Shown one piece after another: positions 43,428 through 64,000 of a stretch of DNA of 64,000 nt; position 1 is the stretch's first letter, and the number at the start of each line of letters is the position of its first letter. The stretch lies in assembly GCA_006503535.1 (NCBI GenBank), contig QYRS01000012.1, forward strand, positions 1,736,001-1,800,000. The letters run 5' to 3'. This DNA comes from Arthrinium phaeospermum (taxonomy: Eukaryota; Ascomycota; Sordariomycetes; Amphisphaeriales; Apiosporaceae). The notes beneath the pieces are model-generated. The model worked only from the letters and a program-made list of their open reading frames with translations. It searched no databases and was not told where the DNA came from. Position numbers and translations under genes: made by a program.

Positions 43428-44789
43428 CTACTGGTCCTCTTCTCCTTTCGGCGGAGGCATGATGAGGGCATCTGCCATCGCAATGGCACCTTCCATGTCG
43501 TCCTTGTGGAACACGAAGAGTCCCTGGATCCTGGCCGTACTGGTCCGAGTGGAAGTACCTTCCTTGAAGAGGCCCAGTGCATCAAGCCGGGCCAGGAACC
43601 GTTCCCGGCCCTTCCCGTCCGTATCCACGTCGCCGTAGAATTTGGTCCATAGCTCAGCGGCCTGGTAGCTCGTGGCCTCGCCGATGCGGCTTATCATGTC
43701 GACGCGGCCAGGACGGTAGAGCGCAGGGTCCAGCAACTCAACGTGGTTCGTGGTGAGGAACGCGATCCTGTCCTCCCCCGCCGATATCCCGTCCAGCGCG
43801 TTCAGCAGTCCAGAGTAAGTGACAGTCGGTCCGCTATATCCATCTGCGCCTCGTTTCGTTCGGTTGACAAAGGCAGTGTCCACGTCTTCTAACAGGAGTA
43901 TCGTTCGCTGGGGAAGTTTGGAGAGCAGAAGGGCGAGTTTGTCGTCCGTCAGGCCGAACGCGCTCAGATTGAGCATGGCCACATTATAATCTAGTTCGCC
44001 AGCCAAAGCTTGGATGAAAGACGATTTTCCAGTACCAGGGGGTCCATGCAGCAAGTATCCTCGTCGGTAAGGTATGCCGCGGTCGACATACCACTGTCGT
44101 CGGTTGAGGAAATCTTTGACGTCGCCCACTATGCTTTCCTTCAGACCCTCGGCAAGCACCACGCTATCGAGAGGTCGCTTGAAGCGCGCCTCGCCCTGGG
44201 GCTCCCAGTTGAAGTTGTGTACCATGTACACGACTGTCTTGCCCGCAATGGCTTGTCGGACCTTGGCGTACGCTTCGGTGAAGATGTCCTCGAAGATGTG
44301 TCGGTTTGAGTACAGGGTGGTGAGCTGCATCGTCTCGTGGGGTTCGCCCGTGGTCATGTTGGCAGTCGACTGCTTCATTCTCTCTACCGCTATGTAGGCA
44401 TGCTTGTATTTGACAATGTGGCGGCCGTATCCGGGCTGCAGGAAGAAGCTGGCGTTCGAGGGGCCATTGGGATTCTTGGTGCTGGTGGTGGCGACGGACA
44501 GATGGTTGATTCGGGTCAGACGCTTTGCCAAGAAGGAGGTGTGCGCTCGGTGCTCGGATAGCCATGCCAATATCCATGGATAGGAGGGATCCTGCTTGCC
44601 GATCTCGACGTTGACGAGCATGCGGGTGCGAATGGCACGCGCCGCCGAGATCGCGCCCCGGCGCACATAGGCCAATGTTGCGCCGAGCCCAGCAATTCCA
44701 ACGCCGCCGGCGAAGACAGGGTTGTTGAACAGTTGGTCGAAGTCCAAGAGGGAGTGGCCCCCCGTCTTGACGACGGTATCTGACGACAT
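43428..44789 (-). CDS. BCS1-like mitochondrial AAA ATPase
   Basis: Intronless, 453 residues. The N-terminus has a transmembrane segment (AGGVGIAGLGATLAYV) followed by a basic region (RRGAISAARAIRTRM), the internal import-signal arrangement of BCS1. The BCS1-specific domain covers about residues 50-215. The AAA module has Walker A GPPGTGKSS (249-257), Walker B ILLLEDVD (297-304), a Tyr-Ser-Gly-Leu-Leu-Asn-Ala-Leu-Asp segment, and Arg finger region PALYRPGRVDM. BCS1 inserts the Rieske protein Rip1 into respiratory complex III. A fungal paralogue with another client is possible, since many fungi have several BCS1-like genes. Confidence 0.88.
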   Translation of the reverse strand: MSSDTVVKTGGHSLLDFDQLFNNPVFAGGVGIAGLGATLAYVRRGAISAARAIRTRMLVNVEIGKQDPSYPWILAWLSEHRAHTSFLAKRLTRINHLSVATTSTKNPNGPSNASFFLQPGYGRHIVKYKHAYIAVERMKQSTANMTTGEPHETMQLTTLYSNRHIFEDIFTEAYAKVRQAIAGKTVVYMVHNFNWEPQGEARFKRPLDSVVLAEGLKESIVGDVKDFLNRRQWYVDRGIPYRRGYLLHGPPGTGKSSFIQALAGELDYNVAMLNLSAFGLTDDKLALLLSKLPQRTILLLEDVDTAFVNRTKRGADGYSGPTVTYSGLLNALDGISAGEDRIAFLTTNHVELLDPALYRPGRVDMISRIGEATSYQAAELWTKFYGDVDTDGKGRERFLARLDALGLFKEGTSTRTSTARIQGLFVFHKDDMEGAIAMADALIMPPPKGEEDQ

Positions 44790-46048
44790 GACGTCGGTGG
44801 TTGGATTGAGGTGCCTTGCTGGGATCCCATAGCAAATAATGTTCTTTCAGGATCTAGGCTCTGGTGGGACCCTGCCTGAAAGTACTGCCACCTTCTACCG
44901 CTCCCCCACTACCACCGCCTGTGCCCCTCCGACTCTAGGCCATTAGATTTTCGACTAGATCCCGTCAGCGCAAATGGCGTGGGGCGTGGGCTGAATAGAT
45001 AACCCAAACAGCCAGCCATTACCCAACAGTCGTAAGATTGAGGTAAATAAAACCAATTGACCACAAGGGTATACCTCAGTTTTACTGGGCGCTCATTCAA
45101 TGTATTTTCAAACTTACCTAGTTATTCCATTGAAGTGGTCAATTGACGATCGCATTTCAGTTTTCAGGCTGTGGCACGCTGTACATGCAACACCCATTAC
45201 CAGAGCCGTTGATTGCCCCTGTTACATTGCATACTACAATGATAGCTTCATGTCGTAGAGCCTGGTCCTTGTAGGTACATGTATATTCACTTCCCACCTA
45301 TCCAGGAGAGCTAAATGTGCAGCACGCCTTGTACACGACCACCCGTGGGGGCAGGGACGCTGGATGATACCGGTTCGTCAGGTAGCAGCCGTTCCGAATG
45401 ATGAGTGATCAACCCACCACTCTTCAATATCCACCACTAGCAACCGGCTCCCGGCGACCAAGTCGCTTGCAAACATCCAGTCAGATGGAGGTACCAGTCT
45501 TAGGGGAGCTGGGTGGGATTGAACTACGAAATCAAGAGCCGGGGCCCACAAACCGCCTTCGTCAGCGTTGGGTTGGGTGCGAATGTTCACTAATCATCGG
45601 CCACGATGCCCACGGCTTATGATGGACTGCCGAGGCCTGCCGTCACACTAGGCAATGCATTGCGAAATAACGGTCTGCAAGCACCTCTGCATCCGTCGCC
45701 GGGTCGGCTTTTCAATCCTGATCTGATTTCTAAGCTCCTTGCTGATATATTGGCCCATATCTAGATTGAATGCAGGAATCAGTAATCACATGCCGTCAGT
45801 AGGCAGATATTTATGCGAGCCCCGTCACTTATTGACGGGGCGATTGATCTGTTGCTTGGGCCACGCCATGGAGATATTCTTGAGCACGAATGCGTGTTGA
45901 GAGGCAAACTTAAGCCCGTTTCTAGCAGCTTAGTGCAGACCTTAGCAAACACCATTTTGGTCTCTGAATGATTATTGCCCTTTCATTCAAGCCGATCCCT
46001 TCAGCTCCTCCTGGCACGCCTAAACAAATTCAGACAGAATATCAGAAG
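44790..46048. other. Divergent intergenic with a small inverted-repeat element
   Basis: No gene seen. At 45395-45602 a segment has imperfect inverted ends (GAATGATGAGTGATCAACCC on the left; the complement of GGTGCGAATGTTCACTAATC on the right). Confidence 0.4.
45395..45602. mobile_element. Possible MITE-like element with degenerate terminal inverted repeats
   Basis: About 208 bp. The left end GAATGATGAGTGATCAACCC and the reverse complement of the right end (GATGATTAGTGAACATTCGC) agree over a core TGATNAGTGA. A related left arm GAATGATGAGTGAGCAACC occurs at about 9693, suggesting a dispersed family. No target-site duplication is clear. Confidence 0.3.
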
Positions 46049-57052: not shown

Positions 57053-57989
57053 CTACTTAGCACGGTAACAAATGACCAATTCCTCTCCATCCATAACTTC
57101 CTCAGATGTAAAGTCATCATCTCCTTGGCTTACATCCGTGTCCTCAATCGAGATCTCTAAGTCTTGCTCCTGTATGCTGACTTCCTCGTTCCCAAGCATT
57201 GCCCCCTTTGTGTAATCCTCGTTACTCTTCACCGGGCCCGACTTACTGACCGTGACCTTGCGTACCCTATACGCAAGTACAAAGTCGCTGCTCTCCTTCC
57301 ACGAAGTGGCCTCCTTTCGAGACACGCTGCCCGCGATTCCCGGTCCTCCACTGACAGGCGCGGAACCACCGCTCCAGATGGACCCGTTGACCTCGACCTC
57401 GAGGCCTCCTCCCCTAGACGCAGTCTTGAAGCTGCTGGCGGTTGCGCCTCTGACCGTCTTCAATCCCGTGATGATGTAGAGTGGCTTCTTGTAGCGGGAC
57501 TTCTCGAGGAACCGGCGAACAGGAGCTGCTTCAACGCATATCCGGAGGTATTCGTCTCGCGGGAAGTGTTGCGTTGTCTCGAGACGCTCGAAGGCAAAGG
57601 CTTGTCCCGACCTATTCTTACGTCGTACTTAGCATTAAGTCGGAGGTTCATATGAAAAGAATGGGGAAAAAAGGGGCTATGAAGGAATCTTATGCTTTGG
57701 TCATAACTACCTACCCTTTGCTCTGTTCCATGCCCACATCAACTCCAACACCGAGGAAGCTCAGGAATTTTGTGACTATCGAAAACCTGCCTTCACGGAG
57801 CTTCTCGTACGAAAACTCCACCTGGCGCTTCTCGGTCGAGAATACCTCGTGATCGGCAGGCAAGGGCGCCGTATACAAGGGCGATTCGGGCGTCTTGATT
57901 GACGTCAGCACGTTGCCGATCTTGATGGGCCCGTCCGGGGGAAAATCCCATGTCGGGGCATAGAAGAAGCAGGGCACGCGGTTTGCCAT
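57053..57989 (-). CDS. Candidate fungal gasdermin-like pore-forming protein (RCD-1/HET-Q1 family)
   Basis: Exons on the minus strand are 57989-57715 and 57611-57053, giving 277 residues. The N-terminus MANRVPCFFYAPTWDFPPDG, then IKIGNVLTSIKTPESPLYT, is the opening of a fungal family that I associate with the gasdermin-like proteins RCD-1 (Neurospora) and HET-Q1 (Podospora). Amphipathic strand-like segments follow (FSYEKLREGRFSIVTKFLSF). Exon 2 has PVRRFLEKSRYKKPLYIITG, LKTVRGATASS, a Gly/Ser-rich hairpin region and SSDFVLAYRVRKVTV. The last 64 residues are strongly acidic (QEQDLEISIEDTDVSQGDDD), a plausible inhibitory tail to be removed by proteolysis. About 0.3 kb upstream on the same strand is a subtilisin-domain gene, as in het-Q1/het-Q2. 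Cleaved gasdermins are expected to permeabilise the cell's own membrane. The family call is inferred from motifs and context; frame intact, no breaks. Confidence 0.7.
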
Positions 57990-58300
57990 TATGGATGTCA
58001 CTATTGCACGTATCAATGCAGCAGTTTGCTAGATTGGATGCCAATGTGTGGGGGATTTGGGTTGGTGCTGATGAGGGGATGTCAGCCCAGCCGAGACAGC
58101 CCAGGCAGATTTTCGAGTGTGGTGGCGGGCGCTCCAGGTAAGGCATCCAGGCAATCCTTGACAGCGAATCATTGCTCATGTTGCTCATGCACTTGAAAGC
58201 AGTCAAATCCGCCCGAGGAGGCTTCTCGCAGACTTCGTAAGACCATAGGTTTTGCGTGGCCCATTTATTGATTTCTACACAGGCGATCATCAAAGCTTGC

Positions 58301-61267
58301 TCAACCATCCAAAATGTCCTCGATAGTTCTGTCTATGAACTCCTTATCCTTTCCAAAAAGGCTGTCGGGGTGAAGCCTTATGTCAACGAAGTGGTACCCA
58401 TCTCGTATCCCTCCATCATCCTTCAGCGCGATCCGCCGCATCAACTGTACCATCCGACTGCGACGTCGCAGCTTGTGGGCCTTTTCTGGTAGATTCAGTC
58501 TAGCATATGTCAAGAGAAAAGCAGCAATCCCAGCCATGATGGGTGTTGCATACGATGTGCCCGACTTCACTGCCGTAATTGTGGCTTCTTCATCAGCGGA
58601 TGAAGAGTCCATTGGCCAAGCGGACTCGATCGCCTCGCCGACGGTAGCGAGACTGGTTTGCTCAGAAGGGGCGGTTGGACTAAAGGCCGAGCGGTTGCCG
58701 TTCACGTTGACCGAGTTCACGCACACTACATTGGAGTCGCGCGCCGGGTAACTTCGTCCATGCTGCGCACCGTTGTTTGAGGCCGCCGCGAAGAGAAGGA
58801 CATCTCGGAAGCATGCATGGTTTATCGATCTCTCGAGGTCACCGTATCCGTCATTATTGCCCGCCGGGAACCCAAAGGACATGCTGATTATGTCGACTTT
58901 CCAAACATCCACTGCGTGGTGGATCGCCTTGGAAAATTGAGCGAGTAAGCCAGGATGACTACCAAGATGGAAAGGCATGGGCCGAGTGGTGTCATCAACG
59001 GGTAACACATACATTGGCAATTATCCGGGGGTTGGCAGGCTCCCTATCAGCAATTTTCGCAACATAGATGTCAGCGTCCGGCGCATAGTCAAGCAAAAGA
59101 CTAGTGATAAAGGTGCCGTGGCCATCGAGATCGTGAACGGTTGTTCTGACTCCATCTCGACGCCAACTAAGCTTGGCTTTAATCCTATCACCACAGGCCT
59201 GCATGTCAGGGTGGCTCAGATCGACGCCTGTGTCGAGAATGGCGATCTTGACGGACGCTAGGGACGGGGTAATACAATCATCTGAAATAAATTTGTTGTA
59301 AATGGATCGGTAATCGGATTTCCAACGCAAATACCTTTGGCATCTGTTATTCAACTGCATTAGTGTGTCGCTCTTCGATCGAGTCAGTCGCTTGTCTTGG
59401 TTACATACGCCTGGGGAGAGTGGCCGTCCGAGGGAGTTTCGTCATCGAAGAATTTGAGACCCTGGTCGCCGGAGCGGTAATATAGATGGGAGGGCGGCGG
59501 TGTGAGCTCATCCAGCGGGGTTCCCAGTCTAATTGGTATTGGACTTGGCCCCCTTCGGTTGGGAATAAGGTATTTCCACAGATCCAGCCCTTGCACTGGT
59601 TGTTGTCGTATCACTTGAGCCCATCTGCTCATGTCGAGTTTTTGCACGACTTGGTCCAGGTTCTCGATAGAAATGGAACTGTAAGCCATACTCAGGTCGT
59701 TCTCCAGGGGTTCGATCACCTCGTCATATAGTCTGCCCCTCAAATCCTGAATTCCCAGCCTATTGCCATAGTCATCTTGCCAGACTTTGGGGTCTAGACA
59801 TTTTTGTACCGCGTGAAGAAACTGGGAATTTTCAGGCATATGATCCTCGCAGGCACGGAATACATCCCATGCGTTCAGAAACTTGACGAGGTTCGATACG
59901 TCTGCCTCGACAGGAATGTTGAATCGCTTGGCCAGTTCGGAAAAGGGCGTCACAAAGTAAATTTCCATCAGGGTGATAGCAAGTATGACAATGGTGGGGA
60001 AAGGGTGCGCCATCAGGTCATCAGGGTCGATCTCATCTTCATCGGAATCTCCAAAATATTGGCTCTGTTGTTGTCCATCTGCCTTCAGACCTTCTTCATC
60101 AAATCTTCCAGAAATATTTGTTTGGAGGAATGGCCTTAATGGAATTTGCAAGGCACTCGTACGGAAGAAGAGAATGGTGGAAGAGCTCCACGTCGGCTTC
60201 AGCCATGGTGTATCCTGGAGGTGCAGGACAGCGTAGCCAAGCAGCACAGAGAGGATACGTTTCGTCTTGTCCGTGAAGGCTCGTGGTCCTCCCTGCAGGA
60301 ACTCGTGAAGAGTGACGGGTCTCTGGGTCGGGTCGACTTGAACGTTGCTTCGCTTGGATTCTAATTTGTACAGTCGGCCCCGCATGACTTTGAGTTCAAG
60401 GCGATAATCTGCGGCCATGACACGTCGGGCCTTGTCGATGGACTTGCACAAACGCTTGACTGGGGCACATTGCGCCGCTCGGTATCCAGGTGGCTCGGGC
60501 GCCGCCTGTCCTTTCACGGCGATCCGAACCACGACCTCCCTAGTCGTATGCACCCGCACCTCTTGCCAATCTTCTTTGGCCGAGAGGAACATGTCAAAGT
60601 CTATTTCTTCATCATTCAAGTCGTTGCCTTTGGGTTTGCGATATGTGCCAAGGCCCAGTCTAGCACCGAAGTCATGTACAGGCAAGCACTCGCACCTTTG
60701 GCAGGCGATCAGAGCCTTGAACGTGTCCTCGGCTGCGATTCCCACAGCAAATGATGGCTTGTCAAACTTTCGCTGGGGCGCCAGCTCGTCCCGGGCCCAT
60801 GAGGACCTATCTTCTGGGTAACGAGACTGAACCTCTTTCTCCCACTGTTTCAGAAATTCCATCATGTCGCGACGCTCTTGTCGGCCGCCAAATGCAAGAG
60901 TGGAGCGTATGTAGTTGATCTTAACCTCATCACTTTTGACTTGAACTTCGGTCCATCCGTCGTACAACTCCCGCAGTCTCTTTTCAAAAGGTGCCGTCGA
61001 GATTATGATTGCTCCGATTCGTTTCGTGATGGGATCGGTAAGATCGTATGGTAAACAGATGCCGTCGCGCGCGATACGTTGCATGTGATCATCCGTGATC
61101 ATGAGGCAGTAGGCTCTGAGATCACCGTAGAACTCGTGGAATTCATCATCGTCGGTATGTTCATTTTTGAGAATCCTCGCAATGTCCTGAATGATCCTGA
61201 GTACTTCGTGGATCAAGGCTGTACTCTCGTTGGCTCTGTCGTCGCAATGACAAGGAAGTCGGCTCAT
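58301..61267 (-). CDS. Subtilisin-like (S8) protease with large N-terminal domain, HET-Q2-like
   Basis: Exons on the minus strand are 61267-59405, 59354-59013 and 58927-58301, giving 943 residues, with no signal peptide. The N-terminal 620 residues are mostly helical: HEVLRIIQDIARILKNEHTD, EFHEFYGDLRAYC, PVTLHEFLQGGPRAFTDKTK, ILSVLLGYAVLHLQDTPWLK and HPFPTIVILAITLMEIYF. These resemble the DUF7580-type domain common in fungal recognition proteins. The S8 domain has the full triad: Asp662 in IAILDTGVDLSHP, His700 in DLDGHGTF and Ser860 in SGTSYATPIMAG, with the oxyanion Asn786 in AAASNNG. No propeptide is evident, as expected for an intracellular enzyme held in check by its N-domain. ATG 61267 (MSRLPCHCDDRANES) is the first ATG of the frame. 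Inferred role: recognition-triggered cleavage of the adjacent gasdermin-like protein. Confidence 0.82.
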
Positions 61268-61589
61268 GGCGATCAATGATAGGGGTCGACCGTATCTAAC
61301 TCGACAATGCCGCAAACCTCGCCCTTGGGTGAAATGAATCGAAGACCCCGTGGGGATGAGACTGTTGATTGCAGAGAGCGCTCGTCTGGTTGGTGGGCTT
61401 CAGCCAATCAATCAATCGTCGTTTATGTCCCGGAGCCTTATGGCGGGCTGCAGATGTGATAATACCCCGCCACAGGGGTTGGCACGCCTAGGTCACGCTG
61501 ACACTGGTGGCTGTCTTCTATTTACTTTGGATTCCTTGCATTCTATTTAGTGTTCTCTTCCCTTTTCAATCCTTGTGAAAATCAGCATT
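61268..61589. promoter_or_regulatory. Short divergent promoter between protease and C2H2 genes
   Basis: 322 bp separate the two start codons. A CCAAT box followed by ATC repeats (CCAATCAATCAATC, from 61404) sits near the middle. The compact spacing would suit co-regulation of both genes. Confidence 0.45.
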
Positions 61590-64000
61590 ATGGCAATAGT
61601 TGCAACCAAGGCCCAGGCATGCATTACCTCCTTCGACCAATGTCTTCACCAGGCCGCATTGGTTCACGTGCGAGAGCGTTCTCTAGTGGAAGACCAGCTA
61701 GCAAGGTTTTCCATTTGGACGGGAACTATGCGCGTCCTCGAGCCGGGCAGGCAATCCCTCGACCATCGCCTCCGAATGGCCCCTGAGGTTCAGGATACCT
61801 GCGCCACGCTTTTGGAAGTGATTTTTCGTCGTCTCCAAACTTGTACGTCTTTCGCTCTGGATTTTTACTTTTTCGAGAATATGTTGTCTCTCTTTCCGGC
61901 TTATCTCACCAGCACTCAAGGCAAATCATCTCTGGTGGGCCTACAGCCCCAACACATCGACGACGATACCAACGATGATGCATTCCAGCAAGCCATATGT
62001 GGGATCGCAGAGCACATTGGCCTCTTGAATAAACTATCCAACACCATACGCCGCACTATTAGGGAGTTGCATATTGCTGAAGCAGCTAATGCCGGAGCAT
62101 TCAGGATCTGCGACGATGAAGGCAATGGTGCCGAGGGCTTCCTCAAGGAAATATTCACCCGCTACATCCGTGATAACTTCCCTGCGACTAGCGAAGTGAT
62201 CCAGGAAAGACTAGGAGGCTCAATGATCTTAAGACGGAAGCTAATGCTATACCGAAGGTCGCGCTATGGAACTACGCCTATCCGAGTGCAGAATGTCCCA
62301 TCTCTAGCTAAGACTCGATCACCTTCTCCCAAGCCTGCAGCCGACACACAGGACACATTTACGAGCCACAGAAACGAAGCAACACAATGGCAAGATACGG
62401 TTACGAATCGAAATAACGAAGAACTATCATGGCAGGATTCAATCTCCGTAACTGGGAGCGCAACGACACTCGCTCCTGAAAATTTCCGCAAGCCGTCGGC
62501 TCCATCAATAGTATCAAGCACCAAGACCATTGCGCTGAGCAGTGACGAAAGCCTTGCTTGCCCACCAGCACCAATAGGGTCCATCAAGCAAATGCAAAAG
62601 CAAATAATCATGATGCGAGGAAAGAATACCTGTTCAGGCGAAGAAATCGATGGGATGTCAGGCCAATATTGGGAACATGCAATCAATGCCGTTGCGGAGG
62701 TCATGTGCCCCTATTGTTTTTACATGATACCAGCGTCAGATGTCGCCGATCGGGAAAGGTGGAAGTAAGTCATATTGACTCATTGACCCATGGTACACTG
62801 ACTGACGTGATAATCAGTTCGCATGTGGTGAAAGACCTTGATGTTTACATCTGTCTCTTTGAAGAGTGCGACTCGGCAACAGATATGTACCATCATAGTA
62901 GCCAGTGGCTCGAGCATATGCGACAACATATAGTACGATGGCGTTGTGTTGCCAGGTCCCACGAAGAGTTTTTGGGAAACACTCGGGAGGAGCATGTGGA
63001 GCACATGAAGAGCGAGCACCAAGCAACTCTGACAGAGGCGCAACTTGGCCTGCTCACCGAAAAAGCCGCTCGGCCGATGGGGCCACTGTTCAAATCCTGT
63101 CCCCTGTGTGGCATATTGCAGGGCAGTTCCGATGCTATGGAGGCACACGTAGCAGGGCATCTCAGGTTACTTGCCCTTGAATCTTTGCCTACGTATGAAG
63201 ACGGGGGGTCCAAGCCACTTGAGGAGGACGGAAGTATTACCGGGAACCTCGGCCCAAACAATCGAAGTACAATCCAAAGTTCCATGGCTATACAGCTATC
63301 AGCAGAAGACCCTGCCCTGGGTGGCACCTCTTCCGCCGGAAAAGGATCCTTTGCAAGAAACCTGTTTCGCGACCAAGGCCCTGTCGGCGAGCAGCATAAG
63401 AGACCTGCGGAGGGCACGACAGATATACAACCTATAGAAGATGATGCCCGAAACGATAACGAAGAAGACGGGTGGGACGAAGACGACAACACCGATGAGG
63501 GGGAGGAGGACAAAGACAGCTATGACGAAGACGGAGATATGACGAGCGCCATAGAAAACAGCCGGCGCGCTTACTATGGCTATGACCAGGCAGCTGGATC
63601 GTCTCGTACAGCAGCTCCAGCTTATTCCACAAGTAAGTTCTTGTCACTAGCCAATCTATTACAAATTAGACATGACTAAGGCTCTCAATAGATATAACGT
63701 CCGAGGATGTCGACAGTACACGGACATATGGAGCTCCGGATATATTTGGAGGAAATGAAGAGAACTGTAATTGTATCAGCAAACCATTACCACAAAACAT
63801 GCTTACCAGGTCCTCAGCTTTAGGGATCGATCCAAGCAACTTCTCTGTCGTACCGTCGTCGTATTATGAGCCGGGTAGTGTGAGAGCCATACCTCCCTAT
63901 CCCCCCTTTCCCTGGTCTGATACGGACTATGCTCACTATAAACTTAGGTCTTCAAGGTATTAAGGAGAGAGCCCTGGGACAGGATCACAAGAACGCCTAC
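61590..64000 (+). CDS. Fungal acuF-type C2H2 zinc-finger protein, C-terminus cut by window end
   Basis: Exons are 61590-62764, 62818-63632, 63692-63879 and 63948 onward (partial). The start MAIVATKAQACITSFDQCLH is the first ATG. The N-terminal domain, LVEDQLARFSIWTGTMRVLE and SLDHRLRMAPEVQDT, is the usual opening of fungal proteins annotated with an oxidoreductase acuF-like C2H2 zinc-finger domain. That domain follows: CPYCFYMIPASDVADRERWK, VVKDLDVYICLFEECDSA, QWLEHMRQHIVRWRCVARSH, EEHVEHMKSEH and PLFKSCPLCG. An acidic Asp/Glu stretch comes next. The last visible exon, VFKVLRREPWDRITRTP, looks like the start of a further conserved domain and continues beyond 64000. Divergent from the protease gene. 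Probably an intracellular regulatory or recognition protein; function not established. Confidence 0.8.

What the first reader, a model, noticed from the sequence alone, without database searches (positions are those of the whole stretch)
57053..61267. Gasdermin-like gene next to a subtilisin-domain gene: a het-Q1/het-Q2-like cell-death pair
A 277-residue protein with RCD-1/HET-Q1-like opening and architecture lies 311 bp downstream of, and on the same strand as, a 943-residue protein with an intact S8 triad. Known (recalled, not looked up): in Podospora anserina the gasdermin-like HET-Q1 is cleaved by the subtilisin-like HET-Q2, and fungal gasdermin-like genes are often beside protease genes. 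Seen here: both frames intact, splice sites good, triad complete. Inferred: a working, possibly allelic, allorecognition and regulated-cell-death module.
Basis: partly seen in the sequence, partly recalled or inferred. Interest (0 to 1): 0.93.

Follow-up and report, generated by a model that had tools for sequence, protein, structure and literature searches.

The report
Pseudokinase-protease and gasdermin cell-death cluster
A fungus, probably an Apiospora, carries a membrane-pore (gasdermin) gene beside a protease that most likely switches it on to kill the cell: a known kind of fungal gene pair, but here the protease carries a dead-kinase-like domain and the pair sits next to a zinc-finger gene that seems to be a regular partner.

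Summary
The 277-aa protein is a fungal gasdermin (profile to RCD-1 E=4e-15, to the HET-Q1 pore E=1e-10; fold of its 91% identical orthologue). The neighbour is an intact subtilase, 938 aa rather than 943. Unlike HET-Q2 (388 aa in print), about 650 residues precede its S8 domain: a helical bundle, then Pfam DUF7580, which resembles protein kinases but has an invariant Trp where kinases have the catalytic Asp (67 of 67). The pair is conserved: 39 linked pairs in other fungi; in this genome 6 of 6 DUF7580-S8 genes have a gasdermin nearby, 0 of 25 other S8 loci do. It is a Q2L/fungal-gasdermin sensor-executioner pair, a known kind. 'Allelic allorecognition' is unsupported: both genes sit intact in one genome. 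New here: a C2H2-finger gene (61590-63963) starts 322 bp from the protease gene, and 13 of 15 genome matches of its family lie within 6 kb of a DUF7580 gene (0.07 expected). My paper searches found no description of that link. Cleavage and killing are inferred, not shown.

The parts
57053..57989 (-). Fungal gasdermin gene, 277 aa, exons 57715-57989 and 57053-57611
   Evidence: phmmer to RCD-1 E=2.2e-7; profile to RCD-1 4.2e-15, HET-Q1 pore 1.4e-10; fold of orthologue P0001
57612..57714 (-). Intron of the gasdermin gene (GTAGGT...AATAG, 103 bp)
57297..57989 (-). Pore-forming body of the gasdermin, residues 1-231 (net charge +8), intron included; ends with the conserved EDYxKGAML motif
57252..57296 (-). 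Variable linker, residues 232-246: proposed cleavage zone (inferred)
   Evidence: Mean pairwise identity 0.20 against 0.39-0.58 in the blocks of the body; HET-Q1 P1 residue F238 in print, aligned by extrapolation beyond the end of the alignment
57053..57296 (-). Acidic C-terminal tail, residues 232-277 (net charge -14), proposed inhibitory part
   Evidence: tail charge -5 or lower in 50 of 51 homologues, body charge above 0 in 51 of 51
58301..61267 (-). DUF7580-subtilase gene, 938 aa, exons 59409-61267, 59013-59343, 58301-58927
   Evidence: 938-aa A. marii homologue at 97%
60821..61240 (-). N-terminal helical bundle, residues 10-149, no family assigned
   Evidence: Model with pLDDT mostly above 90 there; Pfam finds only a chance-level match
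59690..60721 (-). DUF7580 (PF24476), residues 183-526: kinase-like fold without catalytic motifs
   Evidence: E=1.2e-28
58493..59255 (-). Peptidase_S8 domain, residues 650-875, spans intron 2
   Evidence: E=2e-28; triad D657, H695, S855
61268..61589 (.). 322-bp gap between the start codons of the divergent protease and C2H2 genes; possible shared promoter (inferred)
61590..63963 (+). C2H2-finger gene, about 753 aa, introns 62765-62817 and 63633-63691 (a 758-aa choice is also open); proposed third member of the cluster
   Evidence: model; family and linkage

Best explanation
A regulated sensor-executioner cell-death module. The 938-aa protein is the sensor and activator: its N-terminal helical bundle and pseudokinase-like DUF7580 domain keep the subtilase in check until an unknown trigger arrives. 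The freed subtilase cuts the neighbouring gasdermin in the variable linker after the EDYxKGAML motif (about residues 228-245), removing an acidic tail of about 45 residues that I propose masks the basic membrane-binding face. The freed N-terminal part (about 230 residues) assembles into pores in the plasma membrane and the cell dies. Shown: gene structure, gasdermin homology and fold, S8 domain with triad motifs, DUF7580, conserved linkage and correlated divergence, acidic tail. Inferred: sensing, cleavage, site, masking by the tail, pore and death.
For: Gasdermin. Protease. Linkage in other fungi: 30 of 67 gasdermin hits share a contig length with a listed protease hit, 9 of 36 further ones too, and 14 of 14 pairs with numbered tags on both sides differ by at most 2. 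Own genome: 6 of 6 DUF7580-S8 genes have a gasdermin within 10 kb, 0 of 12 DUF7580 genes without S8 and 0 of 25 S8 loci without DUF7580 do. Distances of the paired proteins correlate, r=0.75 over 34 pairs, best of 2000 permutations 0.32. Acidic tail and variable linker in the family. Literature: about 80% of fungal gasdermin genes lie near protease genes, about 63% near S8 (PMC10197012 section 15); HET-Q2 cleaves HET-Q1 at F238 (PMC10989679, passages).
Against: No experiment, expression data or trigger. The cleavage site is extrapolated. The correlation of distances does not separate co-evolution from shared species history. RCD-1, the best structural match, works without cleavage, so cleavage is not universal in the family. 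The gasdermin model is of the A. marii orthologue and of middling confidence (pLDDT 66.6). 8 of 17 named organisms in the wider list did not show the two hits on one contig.
Confidence: 0.75

Rival explanations
1. A het-Q-type incompatibility locus: the two genes are (or have alleles) incompatible between strains and kill fused cells.
For: Same two protein classes as het-Q1/het-Q2. The gasdermin differs from A. marii at 26 of 277 positions, the protease at 32 of 938 (ratio 2.75, Fisher p=1.5e-4); the next closest pair of species shows 1.68 (p=0.001), which would fit extra polymorphism at the gasdermin.
Against: Both genes intact in one genome; the protease keeps its long N-terminal part, whereas HET-Q2 is 388 aa. 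The 20 other closest comparisons printed have ratios of 0.80-1.18, none with p below 0.05. No synonymous sites, neighbour genes or strains could be compared.
Confidence: 0.12
2. The gasdermin works like RCD-1: full length, without cleavage, by pairing with a second variant; the protease is not its activator.
For: RCD-1 is the best match in sequence and fold, and RCD-1 works by two antagonistic variants (PMC12881547, passages).
Against: This protein and 50 of 51 homologues carry an acidic tail; [quoted passage not shown] The protease is conserved beside it.
Confidence: 0.06
3. The module is a death system whose gasdermin is not cut directly by the neighbouring subtilase: the subtilase acts on another target or through another protease.
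For: No cleavage has been shown for any DUF7580-S8 protein in what I read.
Against: Conserved one-to-one linkage; direct cleavage reported for HET-Q2/HET-Q1.
Confidence: 0.05
4. Chance neighbours or wrong gene models.
For: No transcripts; the annotated A. marii proteins are predictions too.
Against: Frames open across homologues over several classes of Ascomycota; linkage far above chance.
Confidence: 0.02

Closest known systems
HET-Q1/HET-Q2 of Podospora anserina
   Same: Gasdermin of nearly the same length (277 here, 278 in print) paired with an S8 subtilase; profile match to the HET-Q1 pore chain 9uv9, E=1.4e-10
   Different: HET-Q2 is 388 aa without the long N-terminal part; here both partners are intact in one genome.
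Q2L protease / fungal gasdermin two-gene clusters (Clave et al. 2022, seen only through reviews)
   Same: S8 protease with extra domains within 10 kb of a gasdermin gene; about 63% of fungal gasdermins are near S8 genes (PMC10197012 section 15); fusion to predicted kinase-like domains is mentioned (PMC12881547, passages)
   Different: The passages do not name DUF7580, its loss of kinase motifs, or a C2H2 partner gene
RCD-1 of Neurospora crassa
   Same: Best match in sequence and fold
   Different: RCD-1 needs two antagonistic variants and has no inhibitory tail; this gene has the tail and a protease neighbour
MLKL and fungal HeLo-like/pseudokinase proteins
   Same: Helical bundle followed by a kinase-like domain without catalytic motifs
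   Different: Here the output is a C-terminal protease plus a separate gasdermin; no homology of the bundle to MLKL was tested or seen
Bacterial gasdermin operons
   Same: Gasdermin with short C-terminal inhibitory part beside a protease gene (PMC12881547, passages); weak profile match to bGSDM (3.2e-4)
   Different: Different protease architectures and much more distant sequence

Membership tests
Fungal gasdermin (fGSDM) | Sequence homology to RCD-1/HET-Q1 pore domains | tested here: met
   Single sequence E=2.2e-7; profile 4.2e-15 and 1.4e-10
Fungal gasdermin (fGSDM) | Gasdermin fold | tested here: met
Fungal gasdermin (fGSDM) | Short C-terminal tail after the pore domain | tested here: met
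   46 residues after residue 231, net charge -14
Fungal gasdermin (fGSDM) | Forms pores and kills | not testable with these tools
   Needs an experiment
Q2L protease | S8 or CHAT protease domain with intact catalytic residues | tested here: met
   PF00082 E=2e-28; D657, H695, S855
Q2L protease | Gene within 10 kb of a gasdermin gene | tested here: met
   311 bp
Q2L protease | Cleaves that gasdermin | not testable with these tools
   Needs an experiment
het-Q1/het-Q2 incompatibility system | Short protease (388 aa in print) without a sensor part | tested here: not met
   938 aa with DUF7580; so not filed as this system
het-Q1/het-Q2 incompatibility system | Incompatibility between strains, polymorphism | not testable with these tools
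   No strain genomes available
RCD-1 system | Two antagonistic variants, no proteolysis | not testable with these tools
   No strain data; the conserved protease and tail speak against it
Protein kinase fold for DUF7580 | Kinase-like fold | tested here: inconclusive
Active protein kinase | HRD and DFG motifs | tested here: not met
   TPWLxPTW in place of HRDLKPxN, W355 and W360 in 67 of 67; no DFG in the following columns looked at, 372-392. The motif was matched by eye on the LKP letters, not by superposition

The most novel reading that the evidence does not exclude
The unit is a three-gene immune-type module built on a pseudokinase receptor family. DUF7580 receptors travel with a C2H2-finger partner gene that helps sense or license activation; one branch of the receptors ends in a subtilase and always has a gasdermin beside it, while other DUF7580 genes in the same genome have no subtilase and no gasdermin and (3 of 6 looked at) start with a hydrophobic helix that could itself attack membranes, like MLKL or HeLo-like proteins. 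The same switch would then drive either a necroptosis-like or a pyroptosis-like output, and HET-Q2 could be a cut-down relic of such a receptor.
Probability: 0.3. Interest if true: 0.72.

Novelty: new variant of a known kind. Interest (0 to 1): 0.5.

Why it matters
What triggers the fungal protease-gasdermin pairs is stated to be a major open question (PMC12881547, passages). A defined receptor part (helical bundle plus pseudokinase-like DUF7580) and a C2H2 partner gene that recurs beside DUF7580 genes give concrete handles on it. If the C2H2 gene is required, fungal pyroptosis-like units of this class have three genes, not two. The intact pair also shows what a full-length, regulated form looks like next to the short HET-Q2.

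Tried and rejected
Pfam gives no family for the gasdermin; PF26164, listed for two homologues, is not in the local copy. No hit of the N-terminal helical bundle in Pfam and no other copy in the genome by tblastn, so I could not tie it to HeLo, MLKL 4HB or a STAND N-terminal domain; barely test that part. CHAT proteases as partners of the gasdermins without S8: three CHAT matches in the genome, none on a contig with a gasdermin. General clustering of immune genes as the cause of the C2H2 link: 152 HET matches (only 150 of 241 candidates were scored, so a lower bound); the 90 listed on contigs with a DUF7580 gene were checked, 0 within 6 kb, nearest 6.06 and 6.55 kb, 0.71 expected. That control shows no enrichment, not depletion. 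Positive selection: no coding DNA of A. marii was available, so only protein differences were counted. Clave et al. 2022 is not held. Neighbours of the two gasdermin-like loci without DUF7580-S8 (L015, L033) were not identified.
Full report
WHAT IS THERE. The window is C12:1736001-1800000 of an unnamed 48.4-Mb genome in 19 contigs. The best hits of both proteins are Apiospora marii (gasdermin 91%, protease 97%), so the organism is probably an Apiospora close to that species. The gasdermin gene is 57053-57989, minus strand, one 103-bp intron, 277 aa. The genes are 311 bp apart.

TAIL AND LINKER. In alignment A1 (51 proteins, the window's own not among them) the body ends in a conserved EDYxKGAML motif (Y225 in 51 of 51, G228 and A229 in 50 of 51), then comes a variable stretch (232-246, mean pairwise identity 0.20, against 0.39-0.58 for the blocks of residues 1-231), then a moderately conserved tail (0.31). 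In the window protein residues 1-231 carry +8 and residues 232-277 carry -14; in the homologues the tail is at -5 or lower in 50 of 51 and the body above 0 in 51 of 51. HET-Q1 aligns to the profile up to its residue 227 and is cut at F238 in print (PMC10989679, passages), which falls in or near the variable stretch. I infer that this is where cleavage happens and that the acidic tail masks a basic membrane-binding face.

CONSERVED PAIR. Of the 67 gasdermin hits, 30 share a contig length with one of the 120 listed (of 242) protease hits; of 36 further hits (27 new ones at the end of that list were not used, and only 120 of 184 were listed) 9 do. All 39 agree in organism label, and the 14 with numbered tags on both sides are 1 or 2 numbers apart. 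Where a named organism is in both lists, 26 of 29 and 9 of 17 gasdermin hits are on the shared contig; the misses are listed. Distances correlate at r=0.745 over 34 of the 39 pairs (five dropped for gasdermins under 240 aa), best of 2000 permutations 0.318; shared species history would give this too. One annotated protein, P0120, runs protease and gasdermin together; probably a merged gene model.

OWN GENOME. There are 18 DUF7580 genes (19 matches, two merged), 31 S8 loci (35 matches merged, plus one) and 8 gasdermin-like loci (all but the window re-found with the profile, the weakest at 6e-8; window). Six DUF7580 genes have S8 within 3 kb, and 6 of 6 have a gasdermin within 10 kb. None of the 12 other DUF7580 genes and none of the 25 other S8 loci has one (Fisher p=5.4e-5 for the DUF7580 comparison). 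Two gasdermin-like loci, C5:3132514 (L015) and C5:3024755 (L033), have no DUF7580-S8 gene. One of the six protease genes (C6:234216) has stop codons inside its match, from introns or decay; not examined further.

THE C2H2 GENE. Divergent from the protease gene, 322 bp from start codon to start codon, lies a C2H2-finger gene, 61590-63963, about 753 aa. Genome-wide searches with its finger exon (10 matches) and with a relative (15 matches, all 21 candidates scored) give 15 places in all. 13 of 15 lie within 6 kb of a DUF7580 gene; such zones make up 0.47% of the genome, 0.07 expected, binomial P 6e-29. Leaving out the two query loci, 11 of 13. The 6-kb limit was set after seeing the data, and linked duplication of whole clusters would also give linkage, so the P value overstates independence. 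6 of 6 DUF7580-S8 genes and 6 of 12 other DUF7580 genes have such a neighbour. Controls: 0 of 25 S8 loci without DUF7580 has one within 10 kb; HET-domain genes, 0 within 6 kb (150 of 241 candidates scored, 0.71 expected). In five of the six DUF7580-S8 clusters (window, L010, L011, L012, L014) the C2H2 gene is transcribed away from the protease gene; in L013 it is tandem (coordinates). Seven relatives share the Cys/His spacing. In one (L011) the open frame goes on into what looks like a P-loop NTPase (GPSASGKT; weak Pfam matches at E 0.05, below cut-off), in another (L036) into a kinase-like stretch (Pkinase E=0.0036, below cut-off). This suggests a receptor or adaptor module rather than a plain transcription factor, but that is inference. 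Other species could not be searched.

TWO OUTPUTS? Three of six DUF7580 loci without S8 that I fetched (L028, L029, L031) have a start such as MSGxEVxGxVLGxxPL, a hydrophobic helix; none of the six S8 loci does. The pattern was written from L028 and L029, so only L031 is independent.

POLYMORPHISM. Window against A. marii: gasdermin 26 of 277 differences, protease 32 of 938, ratio 2.75, p=1.5e-4; Daldinia grandis/decipiens 1.68, p=0.001; the other 20 comparisons printed (of 300) 0.80-1.18, p 0.068 or higher. The differences from A. marii are not gathered at the proposed cleavage zone. Without synonymous sites this stays a lead.

LITERATURE. Fungal gasdermin-protease clusters are well known: about 1900 gasdermins in 400 genomes, about 80% near protease genes, about 63% near S8, 18 architectures (PMC10197012 section 15 read). 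Fusion of the proteases to predicted kinase-like domains is mentioned (PMC12881547, passages). HET-Q1 278 aa, HET-Q2 388 aa (PMC10989679, passages). DUF7580 appears in no paper of the library. Searches for fungal + gasdermin + zinc finger + gene cluster gave two unrelated papers (listing only), and C2H2 + NLR + heterokaryon incompatibility + adjacent + kinase one (PMC11412873, listing only, not read). The library lacks most subscription journals and Clave et al. 2022 itself.

VERDICT. A well-supported member of a known kind (Q2L protease plus fungal gasdermin), in a variant with a pseudokinase-like receptor part and a recurrent C2H2 neighbour. Allorecognition is possible but untested.

Noticed in passing
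window 61590-63963: C2H2-finger gene divergent from the protease gene; its family sits beside DUF7580 genes in 13 of 15 places of this genome. Treated as part of the finding.
   Followed up: yes
L011:485-2233 and L036:82-2655: Relatives of the C2H2 gene whose open frame continues into a P-loop NTPase-like and a kinase-like stretch (Pfam matches below cut-off).
   Followed up: partly
L028, L029, L031: DUF7580 genes without S8 start with a hydrophobic helix (MSGxEVxGxVLGxxP), absent from the six DUF7580-S8 loci.
   Followed up: partly
L015:4392-5241 and L033:4630-5625: Gasdermin-like genes with no DUF7580-S8 gene nearby; their partners, if any, were not identified.
   Followed up: no
proteins P0002 and P0020 (Apiospora saccharicola, Apiospora sp. 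TS-2023a): Annotated gasdermins of two further Apiospora deviate at the N-terminus, and P0020 also lacks an inner stretch: gene-model error or decayed copies. Described only.
   Followed up: no
P0120 (Cylindrodendrum hubeiense): One annotated 1443-aa protein holds DUF7580, S8 and a gasdermin-like part; probably a merged model of neighbouring genes.
   Followed up: partly
   Followed up: no
window 43431-44846: BCS1-like AAA ATPase gene (BCS1_N E=1.8e-39).
   Followed up: no
whole genome G000: At least 152 HET-domain matches, a large repertoire of incompatibility-type genes.
   Followed up: no
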